Below are positions 3,211 through 48,947 of a DNA stretch of 54,445 nt, piece after piece; the stretch's first letter is position 1; every line of letters begins with the position of its first letter. The stretch is from positions 1 through 54,445 of the IMG/VR virus record IMGVR_UViG_3300025138_000051; one strand, 5' to 3'. This DNA is from a virus. The position numbers and the translations under genes are program-made. The notes under the pieces were generated by a model. It did no database searches. It was not told the DNA's origin and was given only the letters and a program-made list of their open reading frames with translations.

Positions 3211-3212
3211 AT

Positions 3213-3243
3213 TTTGCAATGTTAAATATATAAACTACTTTTG
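3213..3243 (+). promoter_or_regulatory. Bacteroidota-type promoter with overlapping palindrome
   Basis: The -33 box TTTG (3213-3216) and -7 box TACTTTTG (3236-3243) are spaced by 19 bases, a full match to TTTG-N19-TAnnTTTG. The expected start of transcription falls in or beside a perfect 12-base palindrome TTTTGTACAAAA (3239-3250), a plausible operator. It drives the DnaA-domain gene at 3279 and the recombination genes that follow. Confidence 0.8.
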
Positions 3244-3278
3244 TACAAAACATTGACATTTAATCAAATTTAAAACAC

Positions 3279-3587
3279 ATGAAAAAAAATATATTCGATA
3301 TGTACGCTGATGCGGTTGCTACGCAATTTCATATCACACTTGACCAAATGTTTTCTGGAGATAGAAGAAGAGATATTGTCGATGCAAGGCAAATGCTTTA
3401 TTTCATCTGCATGGAAAGACCTATCAGAATTAGTTATATTCAGAGATTTATGGAAGAGAACGAGTGTCCTGTAAAACACAGTACTATTATTCATGGATAC
3501 AATAGAGCTAAAAGTTTAATTGACAATGACCCTGACTATCAGGAAATTGTAGACCAAATCCAACAAACCAATGCAAAAGTATCATGA
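3279..3587 (+). CDS. Stand-alone DnaA domain IV-like DNA-binding protein
   Basis: 102 residues matching the C-terminal DNA-binding domain of the replication initiator DnaA and little else. The N-terminal helix (FDMYADAVATQFHIT), the basic turn followed by ARQ (residues 36-38) and the signature KHSTIIHGY (66-74, compare DHTTVIHA in DnaA) occur in the right order. The AAA+ ATPase domain of DnaA is absent. Such a protein could bind DnaA boxes and act as an origin-binding factor or as a competitor of host DnaA. It is the first gene of the unit from the promoter at 3213-3243 and sits upstream of the recombination and helicase genes. Its 3' end overlaps the next gene by 17 bases. Confidence 0.8.
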   Translation: MKKNIFDMYADAVATQFHITLDQMFSGDRRRDIVDARQMLYFICMERPIRISYIQRFMEENECPVKHSTIIHGYNRAKSLIDNDPDYQEIVDQIQQTNAKVS

Positions 3588-3966
3588 TATTCAGGATATA
3601 TTAAAACAAGCTTTGGAAGATCAAAAGTCTATAACAACTATCCTTACAAAAGGCTTAGCGGTTATAGGAAGAGGAGTTAAGATTCAAAAATTTGAAGATA
3701 AGACAGAGATTCTAAACATGGGCAAAGGCGGTATGTATTATTTAGAATGTGATAGTGAAGAGTATGGGTTTTTTGCTGAGCATGGTTGGATTGAAGGCTC
3801 AAAACATATTGCTTTAAATAATTGTCTACATAAATTAAGTCTTGTAGAAGACAGAATAAAGGAAGAGATGAACACCAGAAAGAATGATAAGCACATTCAA
3901 AACATGAAGACCAGAAGAGAAAACCTTTTAAAAAAATACTTCATCATTAAACAAGAATTAAATTAA
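3571..3966 (+). CDS. Hypothetical protein with C-terminal coiled coil
   Basis: 131 residues. The first part is mixed (FEDKTEILNMGKGGMYYLE) and the last 55 residues are a charged helix (LVEDRIKEEMNTRKNDKH). No family is recognised. It overlaps the DnaA-like gene by 17 bases and precedes the annealing-protein gene by nine bases, so it is co-expressed with replication and recombination functions and may be an accessory to them. Confidence 0.7.
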   Translation: MQKYHDIQDILKQALEDQKSITTILTKGLAVIGRGVKIQKFEDKTEILNMGKGGMYYLECDSEEYGFFAEHGWIEGSKHIALNNCLHKLSLVEDRIKEEMNTRKNDKHIQNMKTRRENLLKKYFIIKQELN

Positions 3967-3975
3967 ATAAATATT

Positions 3976-4620
3976 ATGAAACAGAACACAATTTTTGAAA
4001 CTTTAGGTAAGCTTCAAGTTTCAGACAAGACCCAAAAGAAAGGTAGATTCTCTTATCTATCATGGGCATGGGCTTGGCACATCTTAAAACAAAACTATCC
4101 AGATGCTCAGCGTAAAGTATATGAGAATCCTGAAGGAGTTCCATATTTTACTGATGGCAAATTTGCTAATGTAAAAGTTGGAATTATAATCAATGGGTTA
4201 GAGCATATTGATTACCTTCCGATTACTGACAATTCAAACAGGTCTATTCCTTTGGTAAAAATTACATCATTTCAAGTTAACACTGCTATACAAAGATCAA
4301 CTGCAAAAGCTATTGCTCTTCATGGACTTGCATTGTCTTTATGGATTGATGAAGACACAACTAAGTGTTGGGGAACTCCAGATGCACCACTCAAATCAAC
4401 TGATAAAAAGAAAGATACTGATAAATACACTATTCAAATCAATGACCCTGAAAAGTGGGACGATATGATGGATTATGTAGTCAAGTGGAAAGCCAAAGGT
4501 TTAACTTGGATTATAAATAATATCAGTAAAGAGTATATCATTACAAAAGAAGTGGAAAATCAAATCAAAATCAAATTAAATGGAAAAGGAAAAAGTACTA
4601 AAAAAACTACAAAACGATAA
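3976..4620 (+). CDS. DUF1071-type single-strand annealing protein
   Basis: 214 residues. The segments FSYLSWAWAWHILKQNYPDA (residues 25-44), PYFTDGKFANVKVGIIINGL (56-75), HIDYLPITD (77-85) and ITSFQVNTAIQRSTAKAIAL (96-115) followed by HGLAL are the classic signature of DUF1071 (Sak3-like) phage recombinases. These proteins coat single-stranded DNA and anneal complementary strands, working with a partner exonuclease in Red-type recombination. The exonuclease gene follows directly and overlaps by 41 bases. The C-terminal 90 residues are less conserved and end in a Lys-rich tail (KGKSTKKTTKR). Confidence 0.9.
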   Translation: MKQNTIFETLGKLQVSDKTQKKGRFSYLSWAWAWHILKQNYPDAQRKVYENPEGVPYFTDGKFANVKVGIIINGLEHIDYLPITDNSNRSIPLVKITSFQVNTAIQRSTAKAIALHGLALSLWIDEDTTKCWGTPDAPLKSTDKKKDTDKYTIQINDPEKWDDMMDYVVKWKAKGLTWIINNISKEYIITKEVENQIKIKLNGKGKSTKKTTKR

Positions 4621-5320
4621 AGATTATTACGGAGAGTTTGGTAGAAAGTATTTGTCCGCTTCAAATGTTCGTAGTTTATTATACGAACCTACACGATATG
4701 GTCAGTTTGAAAAAACTCTTCCGTTAATACAAGGGGGATACTTTCACACATTAATGCTTGAGCCTGAAAAACTTAAAGAGTATCATGTACTTGACTGTAA
4801 AACCAGAAACAACAAAGAGTTTAATGGATACAGAGCTGAGAACAACTTACATCAGTATGATATTTTATTGTCGCATGAGGTCGAAAAGATTAACAGATGG
4901 GCAGATAAAATGACATCGAACTTTGAATTATATAAGATGATATATGACTCTAAGAATAAGTTTGAAGTTCCAAACATCACAACTATTGGTGGGTTAGATT
5001 GGAAAGGTAAATGTGATATTCTGGGCGAGGATTATGTATATGATTTGAAAACTTCAGGAAACGTTCATAAATTCCGTTGGTCATGCAAGGAGTATTGTTA
5101 TGATGCTCAAGCGTATATATACCAAACATTATTTAATAAACCAATGAGGTTTATTGTTATTGACAAAACAACATTAGAAGTAAAAATCGCTGATTGCTCT
5201 GAGGAGTTTATTGATAGCGGTCAACAAAAAGTAGAAAATGCAATCAAAGTTTATAAAAAGTTTTTTGGTGATGAAGCAGATGATGACATTGATAGCTTCA
5301 TATATAGAGAAAAGTTATAG
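4580..5320 (+). CDS. PD-(D/E)XK exonuclease, RecE/lambda-exo-like
   Basis: 246 residues. LSASNVRSLL (25-34) and GGYFHTLMLEPEKL (52-65) form the N-terminal part with conserved His and Glu, and GKCDILG (143-149) followed by YDLKTS (154-159) supplies the catalytic D146 and D155-x-K157 of the PD-(D/E)XK fold; YDAQAYIY is the usual helix after the core. This is the RecE-like (PDDEXK_11/DUF3799-like) family, which degrades one strand of duplex DNA to give 3' overhangs. It starts inside the annealing-protein gene (41-base overlap), so the two form one recombination unit used for repair and concatemer formation. Exonuclease polarity is inferred from the family. Confidence 0.85.
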   Translation: MEKEKVLKKLQNDKDYYGEFGRKYLSASNVRSLLYEPTRYGQFEKTLPLIQGGYFHTLMLEPEKLKEYHVLDCKTRNNKEFNGYRAENNLHQYDILLSHEVEKINRWADKMTSNFELYKMIYDSKNKFEVPNITTIGGLDWKGKCDILGEDYVYDLKTSGNVHKFRWSCKEYCYDAQAYIYQTLFNKPMRFIVIDKTTLEVKIADCSEEFIDSGQQKVENAIKVYKKFFGDEADDDIDSFIYREKL

Positions 5321-5354: not shown

Positions 5355-5438
5355 ATGAGTAGAAATGATAAGGACAACCTTATTAGTGCTACAATTAATT
5401 TCTTGGAGCATAACATTAAAATTAAAGATAATGAGTAA
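5355..5438 (+). CDS. Possible very small protein before the SSB-like gene
   Basis: A 27-residue frame (MSRNDKDNLISATINFLEHN then IKIKDNE) fills the gap after the exonuclease gene and its stop overlaps the ATG of the next gene by eight bases, as in translational coupling. Against it: no family is recognised, the size is minimal and the frame stays open upstream of this ATG. It may simply be a coupled leader. Confidence 0.35.
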   Translation: MSRNDKDNLISATINFLEHNIKIKDNE

Positions 5439-5718
5439 CAATCAGAATCAAAAACCTATCTATGTCGGAAGTGGTGTAGAAAAGTTTGACGGGGATCTAA
5501 TCGAAGTTTCAGTTTGTTTATCCGACTTACCATCAGAGCATCGCTTTGAGTACAACGGTAAGTGGTATGCAAAGCTTAAGATTAATCGTAAAAGAGAGAC
5601 AGATGAATATGGTAAAACACATTCAGTGTCTATCAACACGTGGAAGCCAGAGCCGAAACAAAATGAAAAACAAGTAGCTAACCCTGTAGCAGAAAATGAT
5701 GGTGATTTACCATTTTAA
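5431..5718 (+). CDS. SSB-like single-stranded DNA-binding protein
   Basis: 95 residues from the ATG at 5431. The C-terminus ends in an acidic linker and NDGDLPF, which matches the SSB tail (DDDIPF in E. coli) that recruits partner proteins. The core (VSVCLSDLPSEHRFEYNGKW, then YAKLKINRKRE) is strand-rich and could be an OB-fold, though short for a full SSB. An upstream ATG at 5365 would add 22 hydrophobic residues in place of a normal SSB start, so it is rejected. It follows the annealing protein and exonuclease and would protect single strands made during replication and recombination. The SSB call rests on the tail, size and context. Confidence 0.65.
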   Translation: MSNNQNQKPIYVGSGVEKFDGDLIEVSVCLSDLPSEHRFEYNGKWYAKLKINRKRETDEYGKTHSVSINTWKPEPKQNEKQVANPVAENDGDLPF

Positions 5719-5738
5719 TTAAATCAAGTGTTGTAATT

Positions 5739-5775
5739 AAGAGGTAGACCGTATGATTGCTCTTACCTACCTCTT
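5739..5775 (+). terminator. Hairpin, probable terminator after the recombination operon
   Basis: A perfect 9-bp inverted repeat, AAGAGGTAG (5739-5747) and CTACCTCTT (5767-5775), encloses a 19-base loop and is followed by TCTTATG. It begins 20 bases after the SSB-like stop. The T-run is weak, so termination may be partial; it could also be a protein or RNA recognition site next to the origin-like region. Confidence 0.5.
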
Positions 5776-5786
5776 TCTTATGACGT

Positions 5787-5887
5787 AAATGACAAACAGA
5801 ACAACTAATTTAGGGAACAAGGAATATACAATACTATATATATTTTTTATATATAATTATCTATTTATTTCTGTCATTTCTGTCATT
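5787..5887. other. Origin-like AT-rich region with repeats
   Basis: In the 195-base gap before the primase gene, a nearly pure A/T stretch (about 5829-5870) is followed by a 9-base tandem repeat ATTTCTGTC at 5867-5875 and 5876-5884 plus ATT. The reverse complement of part of this repeat, AAATGACA, occurs at 5787-5794, on the other side of the AT tract. Easily melted DNA flanked by repeats beside a primase-helicase gene is the usual layout of a phage origin. It could instead be a promoter/operator region for the helicase operon, though no TAnnTTTG box was found. Confidence 0.4.
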
Positions 5888-5913
5888 AAAGAAGTAAAAT
5901 AAACTATAATTAA

Positions 5914-8313
5914 ATGGAAATAACTATATTTAAAGATATAAAAGAAACTTCACAACCTTTTTACAGAGACGTAAATATTATTCTTGATAGGATAAGAGAC
6001 GGTGCTTCTAAAGACATTATTAAAAGAATACGTTCTGAAAAAGATAAAGAAAAAATAAATAATTTAAAACAACAGCTACCTGCTGTATGTTTCAGTGGTA
6101 AGTTCACAAAACGAAATGATAAATCATTAAGTCAACACAGTGGATTGATTTGTTTAGATTTCGATGGCTATCCTAACAACAGAGAATTACTTCAAGAAAA
6201 AGAAAAACTTGCAAAGAATAAATATGTGTACTCAGTATTTATATCTCCAAGTGGAAACGGATTAAAAGCAGTTGTTAAAATACCACCAATACCAGAAAAC
6301 CATAAGAATTATTTTCTTGGGTTAGAAAAACATTTTTCTTCACAATATTTTGACATCTCTTGTAAAAATGTATCACGTGTATGCTATGAAAGTTATGATC
6401 CTCTAATCTATTTCAATGAAAACGCAAGTGTTTGGGATAAATTAGAAGACAAAGAGTACACAGAAGTTGTAAAGCACGTAGATATACAGACAATACCTGT
6501 CACTGACGAGAATAAAATCGTAGAAATTTTAGTAAAGTGGTGGCAAAAAAAATATCCTATGATGGAAGGAGCAAGGAACAATAACATTTATGTATTGGCT
6601 TCTGCTTTTAATGACTTTGGAGTAAACCAAACCTTGGCTGAGTATATTATGTCAAGCTTTGAAACTTCTTCATTTAAAAAAGATGAAATCAAAAGAACTA
6701 TATCATCTGCTTATAACAATAAACAAAACTTTGGCACAAAGTATTATGAGGACGAAGAAAAAGTCAGCATGATTAAAGTTAAATTAAAGCGTGGTGTATC
6801 AAAAAAAGAAATTAAGACTCAGCTCGATGCAGTTGACCCTATCATTGTCGAGAATGTTGTAAACAGATTAGAAGAAGAACAATCTAATCACAAGTTTTGG
6901 ACAAAGAATGAGAAAGGTGTTATAAAAATAGTACACATTTTATTCAAGCATTTTTTAGAGGAGAATGGTTTTTATAAGTTTAACCCTGAAGGAAGTAAGA
7001 ATTATGTATTTGTAAGAGTAACAAATAATTTGATTGACCATACTGCAGAGAAAGAAATTAAAGATTTTATATTAGATTATTTGTTAGAGGTTGATGATTA
7101 TACTGTTTATAATTACTTTGCAGAACATACCAGATACTTTAGAGAAGAGTTTTTAACCTTGTTAAACTCAATAGAGGTGTATTTTATAGAAGACAGTAAA
7201 GACACATCATACTTATATTATCGTAATGGAGCGGTTAAGATAAAGGAAGACAGTGTAACTATGATTGACTACCTCGACTTAGGTGGTTATGTATGGAAAG
7301 ACCACGTTATAGATAGAGATTTTGCATTTTGTGATAGTGTTCATTGTGACTATCAAAACTTTATAAGTAACATATGCGGTGGCGATGAAGAAAGAACATT
7401 GTCTATGAAAAGCACCATAGGATATATGCTCCATGGCTGGAAAAACTTAGCCTATTGTCCTGCTATAATACTCAATGATGAAGTTATATCTGACAATCCT
7501 GAAGGTGGTAGTGGAAAAGGATTATGGATTAATGGACTAAGCCAAATGAAAAAGGTTGTAGTTATAGATGGTAAGTCTTTTAATTTTGAGAAAAGCTTTG
7601 CATACCAACTTGTTTCAGCAGATACACAAGTCTTAACTTTTGATGATGTACGTAAACACTTTGACTTTGAAAGATTATTCTCTGTTGTAACAGAAGGATT
7701 AACTCTTGAAAAGAAAAATAAAGATGCTATTAAAATACCTTTCAGCAAGTCCCCTAAAATTGCCATAACTACTAACTATGCCATCAAAGGCAAGGGGACT
7801 TCGTTTGAAAGACGAAAGTGGGAATTAGAATTAGCACATCATTATAACAAAGATTACACACCTTTAGAAGAGTTTGGTAAGATGATGTTTGGAGACTGGA
7901 ATGATGAAGAGTGGTGTCAGTTTGATAACTACATGATTCAATGTCTTCAGCTATATTTAGAAAAAGGATTAATAAAAAGTACATTTGTTAACCTTAAAAT
8001 ACGTAAGTTATCAGCTGAAACATGCCATGAGTTTATTGAGTGGTGTGGAGTTTTAGGAGACGCTATGCATGATAAATTAAGGGTTGGCGGTAAAAGAAAC
8101 AAGTCAGATTTGTATTTAGATTTTGTAGAGGACTATCCAGATTTTGCACCTAAATCAAAAATGACAGTGAGCCGTACTCGTTTTAATAAATGGTTGATAG
8201 CATTTAGTCAGTTTAAGTATGATTGTTCACCAGAAGAAGGCAGAGAGGCTAATATGAGATGGATAAGGTTTAGAAACAAACATGAATTAGAAACACAAGG
8301 AGATTTATTTTAA
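5914..8313 (+). CDS. Primase-helicase: BT4734/VirE-N domain plus SF3-type helicase
   Basis: 799 residues. The N-terminal domain (about 45-185) carries HSGLICLDFDGY (75-86) and SPSGNGLKAVVKIP (111-124), typical of the BT4734-like/VirE-N primase-type domain of Bacteroidota elements. Residues 205-275 (KWWQKKYPMMEGARNNNIY) look like a PriCT linker. The C-terminal half is a D5/SF3-like ATPase: Walker A NPEGGSGKG (about 527-535), Walker B VLTFDD, motif C KIAITTNY and an arginine-finger region SFERRKWELE. It would make primers and unwind DNA at the fork. It follows the origin-like gap and its stop overlaps the start of the next helicase gene (TAATG). No polymerase gene is nearby, so synthesis probably uses the host enzyme. 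Confidence 0.85.
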   Translation: MEITIFKDIKETSQPFYRDVNIILDRIRDGASKDIIKRIRSEKDKEKINNLKQQLPAVCFSGKFTKRNDKSLSQHSGLICLDFDGYPNNRELLQEKEKLAKNKYVYSVFISPSGNGLKAVVKIPPIPENHKNYFLGLEKHFSSQYFDISCKNVSRVCYESYDPLIYFNENASVWDKLEDKEYTEVVKHVDIQTIPVTDENKIVEILVKWWQKKYPMMEGARNNNIYVLASAFNDFGVNQTLAEYIMSSFETSSFKKDEIKRTISSAYNNKQNFGTKYYEDEEKVSMIKVKLKRGVSKKEIKTQLDAVDPIIVENVVNRLEEEQSNHKFWTKNEKGVIKIVHILFKHFLEENGFYKFNPEGSKNYVFVRVTNNLIDHTAEKEIKDFILDYLLEVDDYTVYNYFAEHTRYFREEFLTLLNSIEVYFIEDSKDTSYLYYRNGAVKIKEDSVTMIDYLDLGGYVWKDHVIDRDFAFCDSVHCDYQNFISNICGGDEERTLSMKSTIGYMLHGWKNLAYCPAIILNDEVISDNPEGGSGKGLWINGLSQMKKVVVIDGKSFNFEKSFAYQLVSADTQVLTFDDVRKHFDFERLFSVVTEGLTLEKKNKDAIKIPFSKSPKIAITTNYAIKGKGTSFERRKWELELAHHYNKDYTPLEEFGKMMFGDWNDEEWCQFDNYMIQCLQLYLEKGLIKSTFVNLKIRKLSAETCHEFIEWCGVLGDAMHDKLRVGGKRNKSDLYLDFVEDYPDFAPKSKMTVSRTRFNKWLIAFSQFKYDCSPEEGREANMRWIRFRNKHELETQGDLF

Positions 8314-9548
8314 TGTTTAAATTTAGAGATTATCAGAAAAGAATTGTTAGACAGGGTTCTAAAATATTAAAGAACCATAACTTGTTATACTTAACTATGG
8401 AAGTTAGAACAGGTAAAACTTTCACAAGTTTAGGCATCTGCAATAAAATTAAAGCTAATAATGTTTTATTCATCACAAAGAAAAAAGCAATTAGCAGTAT
8501 TGAAGATGACTTTAATACTTTAAAACCTAACTACAAAATTACCGTAATTAATTATGAGAGCTTACATAAAATATCTACAGATCAACATTTTGATGTTTTA
8601 ATATTAGATGAAGCACACTCTATTGGAGCATACCCTAAAAAGAACAAACGTTGTTTACAAATACAAAGTTTGATTTTGATTCATGACCCTAAAGTTATAT
8701 TGCTTTCAGGTACTCCTACTCCAGAGTCTTTTTCTCAAATGTATCATCAGGTTTGTTCTATTCCTGGAAACCCTTTCTCAGATTATAAAAACTTTTATCA
8801 GTTTTGTAAACATCATGTAGATGTTAAACAACGTAGAATAAATGGTTTGTTTATGAATGATTACTCAAGAGGTAGAGAATCTATTTTAAAAGAAATGAAA
8901 CCATATACAATATCGTTTACTCAGAAAGAAGCAGGGTTTGTAGTTGATACTAATGAGGAAGTTTTGTGGGTTGATTTAGAAGATTCAACAAAAGAAATGA
9001 TTAAAACTTTGAATAAAGATAGAATACTCAAGGGGTCTGAAGAAGTTGTATTAGCCGATACTCCTGTAAAGCTTATGACAAAAACACATCAATTGTGTTC
9101 TGGGACAGTTAAGTTTGAATCAGGAAAGTCTCAAGTTGTAGATTACAGTAAAGCTAATTTTATTCATAAAAAATTTGGTAATAAAAAAATAGGTATATTT
9201 TATAAATTCAAAGAAGAGTTGAATGCACTAAAAGAGGTGTATAAAGATGACCTATGCATTGATCTTGAGACCTTTAACTCAACTAATAAAACCATAGCTT
9301 TGCAAATTGTTAGTGGGCGAGAAGGTATATCATTACGTCAAGCTGAAGCTTTAATATACTACAACATAGACTTCAGTGCAACCAGCTATTGGCAAAGCAG
9401 AGACCGTATGACTACTAAGGAAAGACTTTATAATAAAATCTATTGGATCTTCTCAAAAGGAGGTATCGAATCAGATATATACAAGGCTGTTATAAAGAAA
9501 AAAGACTACACCTTAAATCATTTTAAAAGAGATTTATTAGATTTGTAA
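8313..9548 (+). CDS. SF2 DEAH/SNF2-like helicase
   Basis: 411 residues. Motifs in order: FRDYQKRIV (4-12, Q-motif-like), Walker A EVRTGKT (30-36), a Ia-like INYESLH (79-85), DEAH (99-102) and SGTP (132-135, motif III), then a second RecA-like domain ending in YWQSRDRM (about residue 360, motif VI). This is a minimal SNF2/DEAH helicase of the kind phages use for fork restart, branch migration or transcription-coupled tasks. It starts at the stop codon of the primase-helicase gene (TAATG), so the two are translated together. No nuclease or zinc domain is fused to it. Confidence 0.85.
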   Translation: MFKFRDYQKRIVRQGSKILKNHNLLYLTMEVRTGKTFTSLGICNKIKANNVLFITKKKAISSIEDDFNTLKPNYKITVINYESLHKISTDQHFDVLILDEAHSIGAYPKKNKRCLQIQSLILIHDPKVILLSGTPTPESFSQMYHQVCSIPGNPFSDYKNFYQFCKHHVDVKQRRINGLFMNDYSRGRESILKEMKPYTISFTQKEAGFVVDTNEEVLWVDLEDSTKEMIKTLNKDRILKGSEEVVLADTPVKLMTKTHQLCSGTVKFESGKSQVVDYSKANFIHKKFGNKKIGIFYKFKEELNALKEVYKDDLCIDLETFNSTNKTIALQIVSGREGISLRQAEALIYYNIDFSATSYWQSRDRMTTKERLYNKIYWIFSKGGIESDIYKAVIKKKDYTLNHFKRDLLDL

Positions 9549-9549
9549 C

Positions 9550-9756
9550 ATGAGGTTAATTAAATTTTTATTAATTTGGATTAGTCAAAATTTAGCAATA
9601 CCTTTTTGGGTAGTAGGACATATTCATTTATCTATTCATAATTTTCATGACTTAATTGAACTACTTTCTTCAATAGGTATGAACTTAATAGTAGCAATTG
9701 GATTTGTATTAGATTACAGAAATGACAGAGCAACAAATACAAGTAAAAAAGATTAA
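9550..9756 (+). CDS. Small membrane protein
   Basis: 68 residues with two hydrophobic segments (about 3-24 and 36-56) and a polar, basic tail (YRNDRATNTSKKD). It is probably an inner-membrane protein. No family is recognised. It lies two bases after the helicase and overlaps the nuclease gene by 35 bases, so it is part of the replication operon even though it looks unrelated. Confidence 0.65.
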   Translation: MRLIKFLLIWISQNLAIPFWVVGHIHLSIHNFHDLIELLSSIGMNLIVAIGFVLDYRNDRATNTSKKD

Positions 9757-9970
9757 AGAGTTAGAGTCTTTAGGTTATTATGTAATTAAATTAACACTTA
9801 CTAATAAAAATGGTATACCTGATTTAATAGCTATACCTAAAAATTGTAATGTAGAATTTATAGAAGTAAAGAAACCAAATGGTAAACTATCAAAGCTACA
9901 AGAATATAGAATAGATGAACTAAAAAAACATGGAGTCAAGGTTGAAGTTTTTAAGGGATATGAATTATGA
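9722..9970 (+). CDS. VRR-NUC domain nuclease
   Basis: 82 residues, the size of a single VRR-NUC domain. GIPDLIAI (31-38) gives the catalytic Asp, EVK (48-50) the E-x-K pair, and SKLQ (57-60) the conserved Gln; the fold is PD-(D/E)XK. Stand-alone phage VRR-NUC proteins are structure-specific nucleases and are proposed Holliday-junction resolvases. Placed after two helicases, it would resolve branched DNA before packaging. The start overlaps the upstream membrane-protein gene, but MTEQQIQVKKIKELESLGYY is the usual N-terminal helix, which supports this ATG. Confidence 0.85.
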   Translation: MTEQQIQVKKIKELESLGYYVIKLTLTNKNGIPDLIAIPKNCNVEFIEVKKPNGKLSKLQEYRIDELKKHGVKVEVFKGYEL

Positions 9971-43517: not shown

Positions 43518-46500
43518 TTATTTTTCTAATTGTTCTATTCTTGCTTTTAAATCTTCTATCATCACTTGTTGCTCCTTTACCGCATTTATTAGTACAGCAG
43601 TTAAATCTGAGTATGCTACTGACTTAAGTCCGTCATCTTCATTTTCTAATATAAGTTCTGGTAAAACAGCTTCAACTTCTTGTGCTATAACACCAACTTT
43701 TTTTACTTCGGTGTTGAAATCAGTTCTGTTGTAATAAACACCTCTCATAGCTTGAACCTTACCAATACAATCGTCTATTTCAACTATATTTTCTTTTGTT
43801 CTTATATCAGATAATTGAGTTAACGTACCATTAATAGTCATGTTGGCAGTTGAAGGGAAAAATCTATATCTAATTGACCCTCCATCTCTCCAGTATACAT
43901 TACCACAATTCATGTCAAAGTAAGTATCGGCATTATTTGTGTGAAATCTAAAGTGATTTGCTGATGCGTTATTTCCTAAATAGAAATCACCTACGCCAGT
44001 AGTTGTTCTTACTAATGAAGTTCCGTTTACATGAAATTTTGCTAATGGTGTTACACCAATACCACAATCTTGATTTATTACAGTAGCAAAATTATTAACT
44101 GATATTCTATAAGCTCCACCAGTTGCAAATTGTATTGTATCCGAAGCTGGGTTAAACATACCAGTGTTTGTATCACTTGTAAAAGCAATACTTGGTTGAA
44201 AAGCATTTCCACTTGTATATCTACCACGTCCTGCTACAATATTCCCTACCGCTTCAAGGTTACCTTGAGATCTAATGTTTGTGGATACGTTTAATTCAGA
44301 TCCATTAGCATCAAGTCTTACATCAAAATCAGATGTACCTGTGTTGCTTGTGTGAAAATCTATATATCTACCTATTTCAGTTACTGCACCAACAATCGCT
44401 ACTCCACCATTATGCCAAGCTCCACTTACTGGTTTTAATACACTGATAGTACCTGTGCTTGTAATTGTTCCACCTAATACAGGTGATGTTGTAGCAATTG
44501 ACGTAACTCCAGAAGAAGTTTTATAACCAGCGTCATTTGGAAATAAATTATTAGGAATATTGCTTGGTGTTGTTTTGAATTGACTACCACTTGATGTGGT
44601 TATTGCAAACGAGTCAGATGATGTCATATCTCCTGTTGCGGAACTTAATTCTGATAAATCAACATTTAAAGTTACACTACCTGAAGTACCGCCACCGTCT
44701 AATAAAGTTCCAGCAGTTACTGCTGTAATATCTCCAGTGTTAGTTGTAAATCCTCTACCGTTAGTTAATTGATTATTATTTGTAATAGTACAATTTAATG
44801 TAACTGCTCCACTTGAACCGCCACCACTCATGTTTGTACCTGCAGTAACACTTGTTATATCTCCCGAATTATTAGTGAATGGCAAGTTACTTATAGTTGA
44901 TTTAGCAACATTATTTGTAGATGCACTACTAACAAGTATTTGATCTGAAGTACTTAGCGTACCTGTAGCTGTGTTAGGTGCATCTAATATAATATTATCA
45001 CTTCCTGCGTAATCTACACTAATAGTAGGCGTTCCACTTGAACCACCACCTGTTAATCCATCTCCAGCAGTTACACCATCTATATCACCAGTACCACCTG
45101 TAGTTACTGCGGTCACTCTTCCATAAGCGTCTACAGTTATATTATCTATTTTAACAGAGTTGGATGTAGAACCATATGTTCCAGCTCCAACACCACCTGT
45201 TGCCATATTAAGTGTGACAGAGCCAGATGTGCCTCCTCCAGTAAGATTAGTTCCTGCAGTTACAGCAGTAATGTCTCCAGTATTAGATGTAAATCCAGCA
45301 TCGTTACTAAATATACTAAGCCCTATTTCATTAGCGGCTTTTCTTCTTTCAGCACCACTATCTAATACTATGAACTCATCAGTACCAGTCATCGTAGCTG
45401 TCATATCAGTAAGTTCTGATAAATCTAAAGTAATAGTAAAGTTAACGTTGGCAGATGAATTAGCGGAAAATGTTTGTGTACCACCGTCAAGACCTGTACC
45501 TGTGGACATTGTAAGCAAACCATTACCAACTGAAGGTATTGAAGATGAGGTTATATATCCTGCACCATTTGTAAGTTGGTTATTGTTTGTAATATAATTT
45601 GCATTAGTTGCACCTGTATAACCAAGTGTGGCTAATGTAGTTGTGGCAGATGTTAGACTTGTAACATGACCATATGTATCTAATGTTACATCTTGTATAT
45701 ATGTATTGCCTGAGTTATTTACAGAACCTTGACTTGATGTATCTGCATGTGATAAAGTTCCAGTTGAAGTTATTGTTCCACCTGTTAATCCACCACCAGT
45801 TGCTACAGAAGTTACACCTGAAACTACTGAACTTGAAGCTGCTCCTATAAAAGTTCTAATAGCAGAAGCATCACTACAAAAACGTATGTAGTTGTCTGTT
45901 GTACTGGTTCTAAATGCTATTGCTCCACCTATAGTACTTTGATTTTGATAATTAGATCTAAATAATCTTGCGTTAATATCAGCAGCTGAATCTCTATAAG
46001 CAATAGTACTTGCTGTTGCAGCAGTTGTTGCGTTTGAAGTTACTGTAAATGTAGTGTTACCACTTTGATTTGCAGTAGCATCCATAGAACCGCTTAATCC
46101 ATTACCACTTGTTCTTCCGTCTATTTGACCATTACCAACTGATGGTAAAGATGATGATGTTATGTATCCAGCTCCATTTGTTATAGCATTATTATTTAAT
46201 GATATATTAGCTGATCCATTAAATGAAACACCAGCTATAGTTCTTGCTGTTTGCAATACAGTTGCAGATCCTGCGTTACCAGATACTGTTGTTTGAACAA
46301 TATTAGGTTTTGTATTAGTTATAGTTAATGTTCCTCCACTTGAAGTAGAAGTGAGTTCAGACTGTATACCATTACCCTGTGCAAAAGTTACTGTTTCGCC
46401 ATTTGTAACAGTACTTGTTTCTGTTCCATTCCCTTCTTTTAACGTCCAAGAAGACATATTACCTACTTGTGAATTATCTACCTTTGTCCATGTTGTATTA

Positions 46501-48947
46501 GCAAACACAGCCCAATCACCTATTGCCCAGTCTGTTATTCCATTTAAGTTAGTAGAGCCTGCAACAGACACTATGTAATAGTCCCCTGATGTGCCGACAC
46601 TACTTTGTAATGTTGGTGTGTTTGTACTTGCGTTCCATGTACCCTCAAATTGAACCACTCCAGTAAGAGCAGTATTAATAGCTGTTTGTATTTGCGCTCC
46701 TGTTGCTAAACTTGAAGAACTACCACTTACTGCGGCAGTTATTGGTGTTACTGTTGTTGTTGTACCACTGCTTACTGTAAGTGTAGATAAATTACCTGAG
46801 TTTACTTGATTAACTTGACCAGTAGCTCCAGTTGATACAGCAGTTACTCTACCGTATGCATCAACTGTAATATTATCTATCTTAGTACTGTTAGATGTAG
46901 AACCATATGTTCCAGCTCCAACACCACCTGTTGCCATGTTTAATGTTACACTACCCGATGTTCCACCGCCAGTTAAATTAGTACCAGCGTTTACCGCTGT
47001 TATATCTCCAACGTTAGATGTAAATCCAGAATCATTACTAAATATACTTAGACCTATTTCACCTGCACGTTTTCTTCTTTCTGCACTACTGTCTAACACT
47101 ATGAATTCATCATTAGTATTCATTGCCGCAGTCATATCAGTAAGTTCTGATAAATCTAAAGTTATTGAAAATGATCCAGAAGTAGTAATAGTTCCACCAC
47201 CATCTAAACCTGTACCTGTTGAAAGAGCTACACTTGTTACAGTACCCGTATTAGTTGTATAACCAGAATCATTAGTCCATTGAGATATGTTGTTACTTGC
47301 TAAACCTAATGTTACTGAACCAGATGTTCCACCACCTGTTAATTTATTTCCTGCTACTACTGCTGTTATATCACCTTGAGGTACACCAGCTATAGCATTA
47401 TCTACATATGTTTTATTCGCTGCGTCAGTTCCAGATGAAACTGTATCAACACCTTGTATGCGTCCTGTTCCTGTAAGAGTAATACCTGTTTTTACAGTTA
47501 ATACGCCAGGTAGGTAGGACGTGGCATCAGCTCTATTAATATATGCATTACTTCTTCCTGCCCATCCACTGCTCCAATTATCAGGAGAAGAGTTAATTTC
47601 CAGTCCTGCCTCAGCATTTAAATAAACTGATTCGCCTGTTTGACCTGTAGCATAAGAAGATGACTCACCTGCATTAAGTACAAGTTGTTGCCCACCATAT
47701 GTTCTTACTTCATTAGTTCTTATACCTGCTGCATTAGAGAAATCAGTTCGCTCTGTAAATGTTTTAAGATTTGCAATTGTTTGCGCACCTGAAGTTCTTA
47801 CTACTGTGCTGTCTACTAATAATCCTGTAGATGATTGTGATAATCCATCACCAGCTCCTACAGTTAAAGTACCTGTTGAGGTTATTGTACCTCCAGATAT
47901 TCCATTACCAGTTGCAACGGATGTTACACCTTGGGCGTCACTATTAGCTGATATAGACGTAACGTGTCCTGTAGCATTTACTGTTACAGTAGCTCTTGCA
48001 TATGAACCTGCAGTCACACCTGAATTAGCATGTGAAATTGTAACCGATCCACTTGATCCACCCCCAGTTATTGGTGAGGTTGTACTTACATTTGTAATAT
48101 CACCTGCATTATTGGTAAAAGGTAAATTGCTAATAGTCGATTTAGAAACATTACTTGTTGAAGCAGCACTAACAAGTATTCTGTCTGACGTAGATAAAGT
48201 TCCAGAAGCCTCAGTTGGAGCATCTAATATAATATTATCGCTCCCTAAATAATCTACGCTTATTGTAGGTGTTCCACTTGTACCTCCACCACTCAATCCA
48301 TCTCCTGCAGTAATACCGTTTATATCGCCAGTACTTCCTGTACTTACGGCAGTTACTCTACCATATGCATCAACTGTAATGTTGTCTATTTTTATATTGT
48401 CAGATGTTGAGCCATAAGTTCCTGCTCCAACCCCTCCAGTAGCCATGTTTAAAGTAACACTGCCAGAAGTTCCTCCTCCTGTTAAATTAGTACCAGCATT
48501 CACTGCTGTTATATCTCCAACGTTAGATGTAAACCCTGCGTCATTGTTAAATATACTTAGCCCTATTTCGTTAGCTGCTTTTCTACGTTCTGCACCAGAG
48601 TCTAACACTATAAACTCATCAGTTCCAACCATTGTGGCTGTCATATCTGTAAGTTCTGATAAATCTAAAGTAATTGTGCCTGAGGTTGAAAATGACCCAT
48701 CTAAACCAACTCCAGTTGATACAGATGTTACAGTTCCTTGAGGATTACTAAACGATGTGTTTAATGTTACTCCACCTTGTAGGCCTATCGAAAGAGTTAT
48801 AGTAGAACTACCAGAATCACTAAAACTATTTACAGAATTAGCGTATCCTGCATTCCATTGACTTGAATTACCACCAGAAGCTGTTATTACTCCTGTTGTG
48901 GTTAATGTTCCGTCTATTGACTGGTTTTCTAAAAATCTAATTGCCAT
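43518..48947 (-). CDS. Giant tail fibre with S74 intramolecular chaperone
   Basis: 1809 residues, Ser/Thr/Gly-rich, built of repeats with TGTDEFIVLDSGAERRKA and IDNITVDAYGRVTAVST as hallmarks. The C-terminal 98 residues are the S74 chaperone: LSDIRTKENI (about 1712-1721), GVIAQEVEAVLPE (about 1752-1764) and a final coiled coil. In this family the chaperone trimerises the fibre and then cuts itself off before the Ser of LSD. NADTYFDMNCGNVYWRDGGS and RFFPSTANM precede it as the tip domain. About 220-residue units occur two and a half times (listed separately). The fibre would bind the host surface; the tip before the chaperone is the likely receptor-binding part. Confidence 0.85.
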   Translation of the reverse strand: MAIRFLENQSIDGTLTTTGVITASGGNSSQWNAGYANSVNSFSDSGSSTITLSIGLQGGVTLNTSFSNPQGTVTSVSTGVGLDGSFSTSGTITLDLSELTDMTATMVGTDEFIVLDSGAERRKAANEIGLSIFNNDAGFTSNVGDITAVNAGTNLTGGGTSGSVTLNMATGGVGAGTYGSTSDNIKIDNITVDAYGRVTAVSTGSTGDINGITAGDGLSGGGTSGTPTISVDYLGSDNIILDAPTEASGTLSTSDRILVSAASTSNVSKSTISNLPFTNNAGDITNVSTTSPITGGGSSGSVTISHANSGVTAGSYARATVTVNATGHVTSISANSDAQGVTSVATGNGISGGTITSTGTLTVGAGDGLSQSSTGLLVDSTVVRTSGAQTIANLKTFTERTDFSNAAGIRTNEVRTYGGQQLVLNAGESSSYATGQTGESVYLNAEAGLEINSSPDNWSSGWAGRSNAYINRADATSYLPGVLTVKTGITLTGTGRIQGVDTVSSGTDAANKTYVDNAIAGVPQGDITAVVAGNKLTGGGTSGSVTLGLASNNISQWTNDSGYTTNTGTVTSVALSTGTGLDGGGTITTSGSFSITLDLSELTDMTAAMNTNDEFIVLDSSAERRKRAGEIGLSIFSNDSGFTSNVGDITAVNAGTNLTGGGTSGSVTLNMATGGVGAGTYGSTSNSTKIDNITVDAYGRVTAVSTGATGQVNQVNSGNLSTLTVSSGTTTTVTPITAAVSGSSSSLATGAQIQTAINTALTGVVQFEGTWNASTNTPTLQSSVGTSGDYYIVSVAGSTNLNGITDWAIGDWAVFANTTWTKVDNSQVGNMSSWTLKEGNGTETSTVTNGETVTFAQGNGIQSELTSTSSGGTLTITNTKPNIVQTTVSGNAGSATVLQTARTIAGVSFNGSANISLNNNAITNGAGYITSSSLPSVGNGQIDGRTSGNGLSGSMDATANQSGNTTFTVTSNATTAATASTIAYRDSAADINARLFRSNYQNQSTIGGAIAFRTSTTDNYIRFCSDASAIRTFIGAASSSVVSGVTSVATGGGLTGGTITSTGTLSHADTSSQGSVNNSGNTYIQDVTLDTYGHVTSLTSATTTLATLGYTGATNANYITNNNQLTNGAGYITSSSIPSVGNGLLTMSTGTGLDGGTQTFSANSSANVNFTITLDLSELTDMTATMTGTDEFIVLDSGAERRKAANEIGLSIFSNDAGFTSNTGDITAVTAGTNLTGGGTSGSVTLNMATGGVGAGTYGSTSNSVKIDNITVDAYGRVTAVTTGGTGDIDGVTAGDGLTGGGSSGTPTISVDYAGSDNIILDAPNTATGTLSTSDQILVSSASTNNVAKSTISNLPFTNNSGDITSVTAGTNMSGGGSSGAVTLNCTITNNNQLTNGRGFTTNTGDITAVTAGTLLDGGGTSGSVTLNVDLSELSSATGDMTSSDSFAITTSSGSQFKTTPSNIPNNLFPNDAGYKTSSGVTSIATTSPVLGGTITSTGTISVLKPVSGAWHNGGVAIVGAVTEIGRYIDFHTSNTGTSDFDVRLDANGSELNVSTNIRSQGNLEAVGNIVAGRGRYTSGNAFQPSIAFTSDTNTGMFNPASDTIQFATGGAYRISVNNFATVINQDCGIGVTPLAKFHVNGTSLVRTTTGVGDFYLGNNASANHFRFHTNNADTYFDMNCGNVYWRDGGSIRYRFFPSTANMTINGTLTQLSDIRTKENIVEIDDCIGKVQAMRGVYYNRTDFNTEVKKVGVIAQEVEAVLPELILENEDDGLKSVAYSDLTAVLINAVKEQQVMIEDLKARIEQLEK
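44790..45428 (-). repeat. Fibre protein repeat, third copy
   Basis: It encodes about 213 residues beginning LDLSELTDMTATMTGTDEFI and parallels the first copy almost residue for residue (through VKIDNITVDAYGRV, SDNIILDAPNTATGTLSTSD and a GGGSSGAVTLN end). The DNA differs from the other copies mostly at third codon positions. Confidence 0.8.
46815..47158 (-). repeat. Fibre protein repeat, second (short) copy
   Basis: It encodes about 115 residues beginning LDLSELTDMTAAMNTNDEFI and ending near RVTAVSTGATG; it contains only the first half of the unit. It differs from the other copies by RKRAGEIG in place of RKAANEIG. Confidence 0.75.
48035..48668 (-). repeat. Fibre protein repeat, first copy
   Basis: It encodes about 211 residues from LDLSELTDMTATMVGTDEFI (residue 94) to GGGSSGSVTIS. 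The later part (SDNIILDAPTEASGTLSTSD) is also similar to part of the neighbouring 735-aa fibre, so the module is shared between genes. Confidence 0.8.

What the first reader, a model, noticed from the sequence alone, without database searches (positions are those of the whole stretch)
3279..3587. Stand-alone DnaA domain IV encoded by the phage
The sequence shows the DnaA C-terminal signature (ARQ, KHSTIIHGY) without the ATPase. From family knowledge, domain IV alone binds DnaA boxes. It could direct host DnaA or replisome proteins to the phage origin or compete with host initiation. I noticed no perfect TTATCCACA in the window, so its target may differ from the host box.
Basis: partly seen in the sequence, partly recalled or inferred. 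Interest (0 to 1): 0.65.

Follow-up and report, generated by a model that had tools for sequence, protein, structure and literature searches.

The report
Phage stand-alone DnaA origin-binding protein
A small phage protein that is only the DNA-gripping end of the bacterial replication starter DnaA is kept, always in the same place, beside the phage's own replication genes, and probably marks the phage's replication start site by binding altered DnaA-type boxes found there.

Summary
Confirmed: ORF 3279-3587 (102 aa) is a stand-alone DnaA domain IV. It passes the Pfam Bac_DnaA_C cut-off, all 60 relatives tested match that family, and its predicted fold matches solved DnaA DNA-binding domains (TM 0.78-0.84). 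There is no AAA+ part and no exact TTATCCACA in the window. New: the gene opens an almost invariant module (DnaA-IV, unknown 131 aa, Sak annealing protein, exonuclease, SSB-like, primase-helicase, helicase, nuclease). It lay upstream of the primase in 61 of 61 relatives with enough sequence. The intergenic stretch before the primase (window 5719-5913) is built like an origin in this phage family: two inverted pairs of boxes flank an AT-rich core. The family box is WWATYRACA, close to the DnaA box but changed at base 6; the window carries a further diverged form. Canonical DnaA boxes are not enriched. The pattern is absent from shuffles and unique in the window. Most likely the protein is a trans-acting origin-binding protein for the phage's PrimPol/SF3 primase-helicase, not a competitor of host DnaA. 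Binding and recruitment are inferred; helix-box coevolution was not shown.

The parts
3279..3587 (+). Stand-alone DnaA domain IV protein, 102 aa (P0001)
   Evidence: PF08299 1.2e-8 above cut-off; AF2 model and Foldseek to 3pvp/1j1v/8btg/1l8q; 60/60 relatives PF08299
3236..3243 (+). TACTTTTG, a Bacteroidetes-type -7 promoter element (TAnnTTTG), 43 bp before the start codon
   Evidence: motif upstream of the gene in 28/90 representatives against 7.6 expected. Promoter function inferred
3571..3966 (+). Conserved 131-aa module protein, function unknown
   Evidence: present in 78 of 84 DnaA-IV loci; confident fold (pLDDT 90.5) without PDB match
3976..4620 (+). Sak-type single-strand annealing protein
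   Evidence: PF06378 4e-30, phrog_659
4580..5320 (+). Exonuclease (DUF3799 / exonuclease VIII-like)
5431..5718 (+). SSB-like protein ending in GDLPF, the acidic tail typical of SSB
   Evidence: sequence; some relatives show the same tail; no Pfam or NCBIfam match, so inferred
5739..5775 (+). Terminator-like hairpin (AAGAGGTAG / CTACCTCTT) at the left edge of the intergenic stretch
   Evidence: sequence; GC hairpin with T-run at the same place in most relatives printed
5781..5789 (-). Box 1, TTTACGTCA
5790..5798 (-). Box 2, TGTTTGTCA
5799..5867 (.). AT-rich core (83% A+T), candidate unwinding element
   Evidence: AT-rich core at the same place in relatives
5868..5876 (+). Box 3, TTTCTGTCA
5877..5885 (+). 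Box 4, TTTCTGTCA
5914..8313 (+). Primase-helicase: PrimPol-like N-terminus, PriCT-1, SF3-type ATPase motifs (GGSGKG, LTFDDV, ITTN)
   Evidence: PF08800 1e-21 and PF08708, PrimPol_Db 4e-13, below its cut-off, conserved motifs read by eye
8313..9548 (+). SNF2/DEAD-type helicase
9722..9970 (+). VRR-NUC nuclease

Best explanation
The ORF encodes a trans-acting origin-binding protein made from DnaA domain IV. It binds two pairs of inverted boxes at 5781-5798 and 5868-5885 (inferred), leaving the AT-rich core between them to be opened. It then helps the neighbouring PrimPol/SF3 primase-helicase load and begin phage DNA synthesis (inferred). The boxes are altered relative to DnaA boxes, so the phage origin would be read by the phage protein rather than by host DnaA. 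Shown: the domain, the fold, the conserved residues, the module, the box array and its conservation. Inferred: binding, unwinding, recruitment.
For: Fold and family. DNA-contact positions kept: Arg399 position K/R 89/89, Arg407 89/89, His434 83/89, while Asp433 is replaced by a range of residues. Published contacts: Arg399 reads TTA in the minor groove and helix 434-451 reads TnCACA (PMC5742627). Gene locked to the primase, 61/61. Box array in the primase intergenic stretch: right-hand pair in 53/90 representatives against 0.66 expected; full two-sided pattern in 24/90 against none in 200 shuffles of the set; unique place in the window; 0 of 20,000 shuffles of the window's own stretch. Unbiased 7-mers: ATCGACA 50 against 0.7, ATCAACA 47 against 3.2; TTATCCACA 0. 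Box consensus WWATYRACAY, sharing AT--ACA with TTATNCACA. No enrichment of the Bacteroidetes promoter motif in that stretch (12 against 13.8). Boxes are not clustered upstream of the DnaA-IV gene in relatives.
Against: No binding data. Box variation did not point to DnaA-IV columns more than to other module proteins; lineage dominates. Resemblance of the box to the DnaA box is only five of eight fixed positions and is weaker in the window's own boxes; a match of that size could arise by chance over registers and strands. GC skew does not switch at 5.8 kb but follows gene direction. The boxes lie at the front of the primase operon, so they could be operators. The primase-helicase itself could be the box binder.
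Confidence: 0.64

Rival explanations
1. Transcription regulator: the protein binds the same boxes as an operator and switches the primase-helicase-nuclease operon on or off, without a direct part in origin firing.
For: Boxes sit between a terminator-like hairpin and the primase start; iterons in relatives lie 10-32 bp before the ATG. DnaA itself doubles as a transcription factor (general knowledge).
Against: No enrichment of the Bacteroidetes promoter motif in the stretch; symmetric paired boxes around an AT-rich core look like an origin; boxes not clustered upstream of its own gene.
Confidence: 0.2
2. The boxes belong to the primase-helicase (its own origin-binding activity); DnaA-IV has another task in the recombination half of the module.
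For: Boxes directly precede the primase gene; many SF3 helicases carry their own origin-binding domain (general knowledge). The coevolution scan did not favour DnaA-IV.
Against: DnaA-IV is the only domain of the module known to read such boxes. Two phages with a related primase N-terminus (elemo, Panino) and no DnaA-IV gene in the stretch read have a different initiator gene and no box array upstream of the primase.
Confidence: 0.1
3. Host take-over: the protein competes with host DnaA at oriC or lures host DnaA or its partners to the phage origin.
For: It is a true DnaA DNA-binding domain; without the ATPase it could be dominant-negative.
Against: Asp433 is replaced in the family and the boxes lack the CACA end; canonical boxes are not enriched at the phage site. 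Strict linkage to the phage primase is not needed for such a role.
Confidence: 0.06

Closest known systems
DnaA domain IV (Pfam PF08299; structures 1j1v, 3pvp)
   Same: Same fold (TM 0.78-0.84), basic loop, ARQ motif and H-S/T-T recognition helix
   Different: No domains I-III; different turn before the recognition helix; Asp433 replaced by various residues; putative boxes altered at base 6 and, in the window, further
Lambda O-type phage initiators with iterons beside an AT-rich stretch
   Same: Works like: small phage protein binding iterons beside an AT-rich stretch and handing over to a helicase (general knowledge)
   Different: Unrelated DNA-binding domain here; the helicase is a phage PrimPol/SF3 enzyme rather than host DnaB loaded by lambda P
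phrog_16091 (unknown function) and GenBank proteins annotated dnaA / DnaA protein in MW202828 and Cellulophaga phage phi18:3
   Same: Homologous stand-alone domain IV proteins
   Different: No function, origin or box described for them in the records read
REP-associated tyrosine transposases with a C-terminal Bac_DnaA_C domain (PMC6006769)
   Same: DnaA domain IV borrowed by a mobile element whose sites do not resemble the DnaA box
   Different: Fused to a HuH nuclease; not an origin binder

Membership tests
DnaA domain IV (PF08299) | Profile match above curated cut-off | tested here: met
   35.2 against 31.5 bits; 60/60 relatives match at E <= 0.01
DnaA domain IV (PF08299) | DnaA-type helical HTH fold | tested here: met
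   Foldseek top ten all DnaA, 3pvp E 5.7e-4, 1j1v TM 0.78/0.84
DnaA domain IV (PF08299) | Minor-groove Arg399 and Arg407 of the ARQ motif | tested here: met
   R29 and R37 in P0001; K/R 89/89 and R 89/89 in representatives
DnaA domain IV (PF08299) | D433-H434-T435-T436 of the recognition helix | tested here: inconclusive
   P0001 has K66-H67-S68-T69: Asp433 lost, the rest conservatively kept
Full-length DnaA initiator | AAA+ ATPase domain III | tested here: not met
   102 aa, aligns only to the C-terminal ~85 residues of DnaA; only one PF08299 gene in the record
Full-length DnaA initiator | TTATNCACA boxes at the site | tested here: not met
   0 TTATCCACA in the window; TTATNCACA not clearly enriched in relatives, 3 against 1.25
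Iteron-type replication origin | Repeated boxes beside an AT-rich core, next to a replication gene | tested here: met
Iteron-type replication origin | Initiator binds the iterons and replication starts there | not testable with these tools
   needs footprinting and origin mapping

The most novel reading that the evidence does not exclude
A whole family of phages, probably of Bacteroidota, starts replication with a two-part initiator not described in the papers searched: a stand-alone DnaA domain IV reads shifted DnaA boxes and recruits a PrimPol/SF3 primase-helicase in trans, with a box code orthogonal to that of host DnaA.
Probability: 0.45. Interest if true: 0.75.

Novelty: new variant of a known kind. 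Interest (0 to 1): 0.6.

Why it matters
If right, it assigns a function to a phage family filed as unknown (phrog_16091), gives a predicted origin for many largely uncultured phages, and shows that the DNA-reading part of the bacterial initiator can work without its ATPase as the address label of a viral helicase. The shifted boxes offer a natural series for studying how domain IV specificity changes. All of it can be tested with a 102-aa protein and a 200-bp DNA.

Tried and rejected
Exact and relaxed DnaA boxes in the window: none clustered. Autoregulation through boxes at the DnaA-IV promoter: TTGACATTT and TTAACATTG flank it in the window, but not in relatives. Coevolution of box base and DnaA-IV residues: lineage-confounded, not shown. 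The clearest co-change (clade L209/L212/L213/L222/L376/L379/L383 with TTGGAATAA boxes, altered basic loop and HNT helix) is a single event. EM motif search without a pattern fell into poly-A and was replaced by k-mer enrichment. Of the Lachnospiraceae genome matches, those read are ordinary full-length DnaA, not stand-alone copies. First box register (TTATGTYGA) was replaced by WWATYRACA after the k-mer result. Fold search for the 131-aa neighbour: nothing significant. Papers: 10 searches found no description of a phage stand-alone DnaA domain IV as initiator; the library lacks most subscription journals.

Full report
Observation. The ORF at 3279-3587 exists as stated and is a genuine DnaA domain IV: Pfam Bac_DnaA_C above its curated cut-off, NCBIfam DnaA models aligned only over their last ~85 positions, profile matches to solved DnaA chains including the E. 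coli domain IV-DNA complex 1j1v, and a confident AlphaFold2 model (pLDDT 88.8, pTM 0.81) whose ten best PDB matches are all DnaA. There is no ATPase part and no second copy in the record. No exact DnaA box occurs in the window.

Residues. Aligned to E. coli domain IV (sequence checked against 1j1v), the family keeps the minor-groove Arg399 position as K or R in 89 of 89 representatives, Arg407 in 89, His434 in 83, and Ser/Thr at 435 in most. Asp433 is replaced by a range of residues; lysine in the window. According to PMC5742627, Arg399 reads the TTA part and helix 434-451 reads TnCACA. So the protein should still bind DNA, with a changed reading of the CACA half (inference).

Neighbourhood. 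The gene begins a module: DnaA-IV, a conserved 131-aa protein, Sak annealing protein, exonuclease, an SSB-like protein with a DLPF tail, an intergenic stretch, a PrimPol/PriCT/SF3 primase-helicase, a SNF2-type helicase and a VRR-NUC nuclease. In viral contigs fetched by primase similarity, every locus with at least 4.5 kb upstream carried DnaA-IV there, 61 of 61 (not corrected for relatedness). A distant relative, MW202828, has the same order at 37-38% identity and its gene is annotated dnaA. Portal, terminase and tail fibre genes lie on the other strand. Known-host relatives of these proteins mostly infect Flavobacteriia, and the DnaA-IV promoter has the Bacteroidetes TAnnTTTG element; the host itself is not known.

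The site. Comparing 166 distinct modules, the stretch before the primase shows a terminator-like hairpin, a pair of boxes on the minus strand, an AT-rich core, a pair of boxes on the plus strand, and in many relatives 11-bp iterons up to the primase ATG. Unbiased 7-mer counts recover the box: ATCGACA 50 against 0.7 expected, ATCAACA 47 against 3.2; TTATCCACA is absent. The box reads WWATYRACAY; positions 1-5 were not fixed by the search pattern and still show W, W, A, T, Y. It equals the DnaA box TTATNCACA except at position 6 (C to A/G) and, often, 1-2; nine representatives carry TTATCGACA, one base from TTATCCACA. Right-hand pairs occur in 53 of 90 representatives against 0.66 in shuffles, 11-bp pairs in 49 against 0.37, and the full two-sided pattern in 24 against none. 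The pattern was chosen after seeing the data, but the excess is very large. The window carries TTTACGTCA and TGTTTGTCA (minus) and TTTCTGTCA twice (plus) around a core of 83% A+T, the only such place in 54 kb; 0 of 20,000 shuffles reproduce it. The window's form keeps less of the DnaA box than the family consensus does.

Mechanism. The best reading is an origin: DnaA-IV marks it through paired boxes, the AT-rich core opens, and the primase-helicase loads. Shown are the domain, residues, module, array and conservation. Binding, unwinding and hand-over are inferred. Against: a scan for residues that follow the A/T change inside the box did not favour DnaA-IV over other module proteins, and GC skew does not turn at the site. 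A role as operator of the primase operon remains open; the stretch shows no excess of the Bacteroidetes promoter motif, but phage-specific promoters cannot be excluded.

Known or new. Homologues are in databases without function (phrog_16091) or annotated by name only. Papers found describe DnaA domain IV in DnaA itself and, fused, in REP-associated transposases with a non-DnaA target (PMC6006769), not as a stand-alone phage origin binder. I rate it a new variant of a known kind.

Noticed in passing
window 3571-3966: 131-aa protein kept between DnaA-IV and Sak in nearly all relatives, with a nearly invariant NTRKNDKHIQN stretch; confident helix/small-sheet/long hairpin model, no PDB match. May link DnaA-IV to the primase or the annealing protein.
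   Followed up: partly
L493 1908-2474 (MW202828 60107-60676) and L210 14907-15458: A second, longer (~185 aa) phage protein with a DnaA domain IV-like part (DHSTIIHYLKKID in MW202828) in some relatives; not found in the window.
   Followed up: partly
relatives, e.g. L003 and L010 before the primase: Between the right-hand box pair and the iterons many relatives keep an ATATAAGTAGTAGTTAG / ATAACTAATAATTAG element that resembles DnaA-trio repeats; the window has only a remnant. Not tested against chance.
   Followed up: no
window 3211-3278: Promoter of the DnaA-IV gene is flanked by TTAACATTG (-) and TTGACATTT (+), possible boxes; not conserved in relatives.
   Followed up: yes
L085 3559-3631 and 12447-12519: A contig binned as a Pseudomonadales MAG carries this DnaA-IV gene and two copies of the box array 8.9 kb apart; binning error or duplicated origin.
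   Followed up: no
window 43518-48947: 1809-aa tail fibre gene with several diverged internal repeats of up to 300 nt.
   Followed up: no
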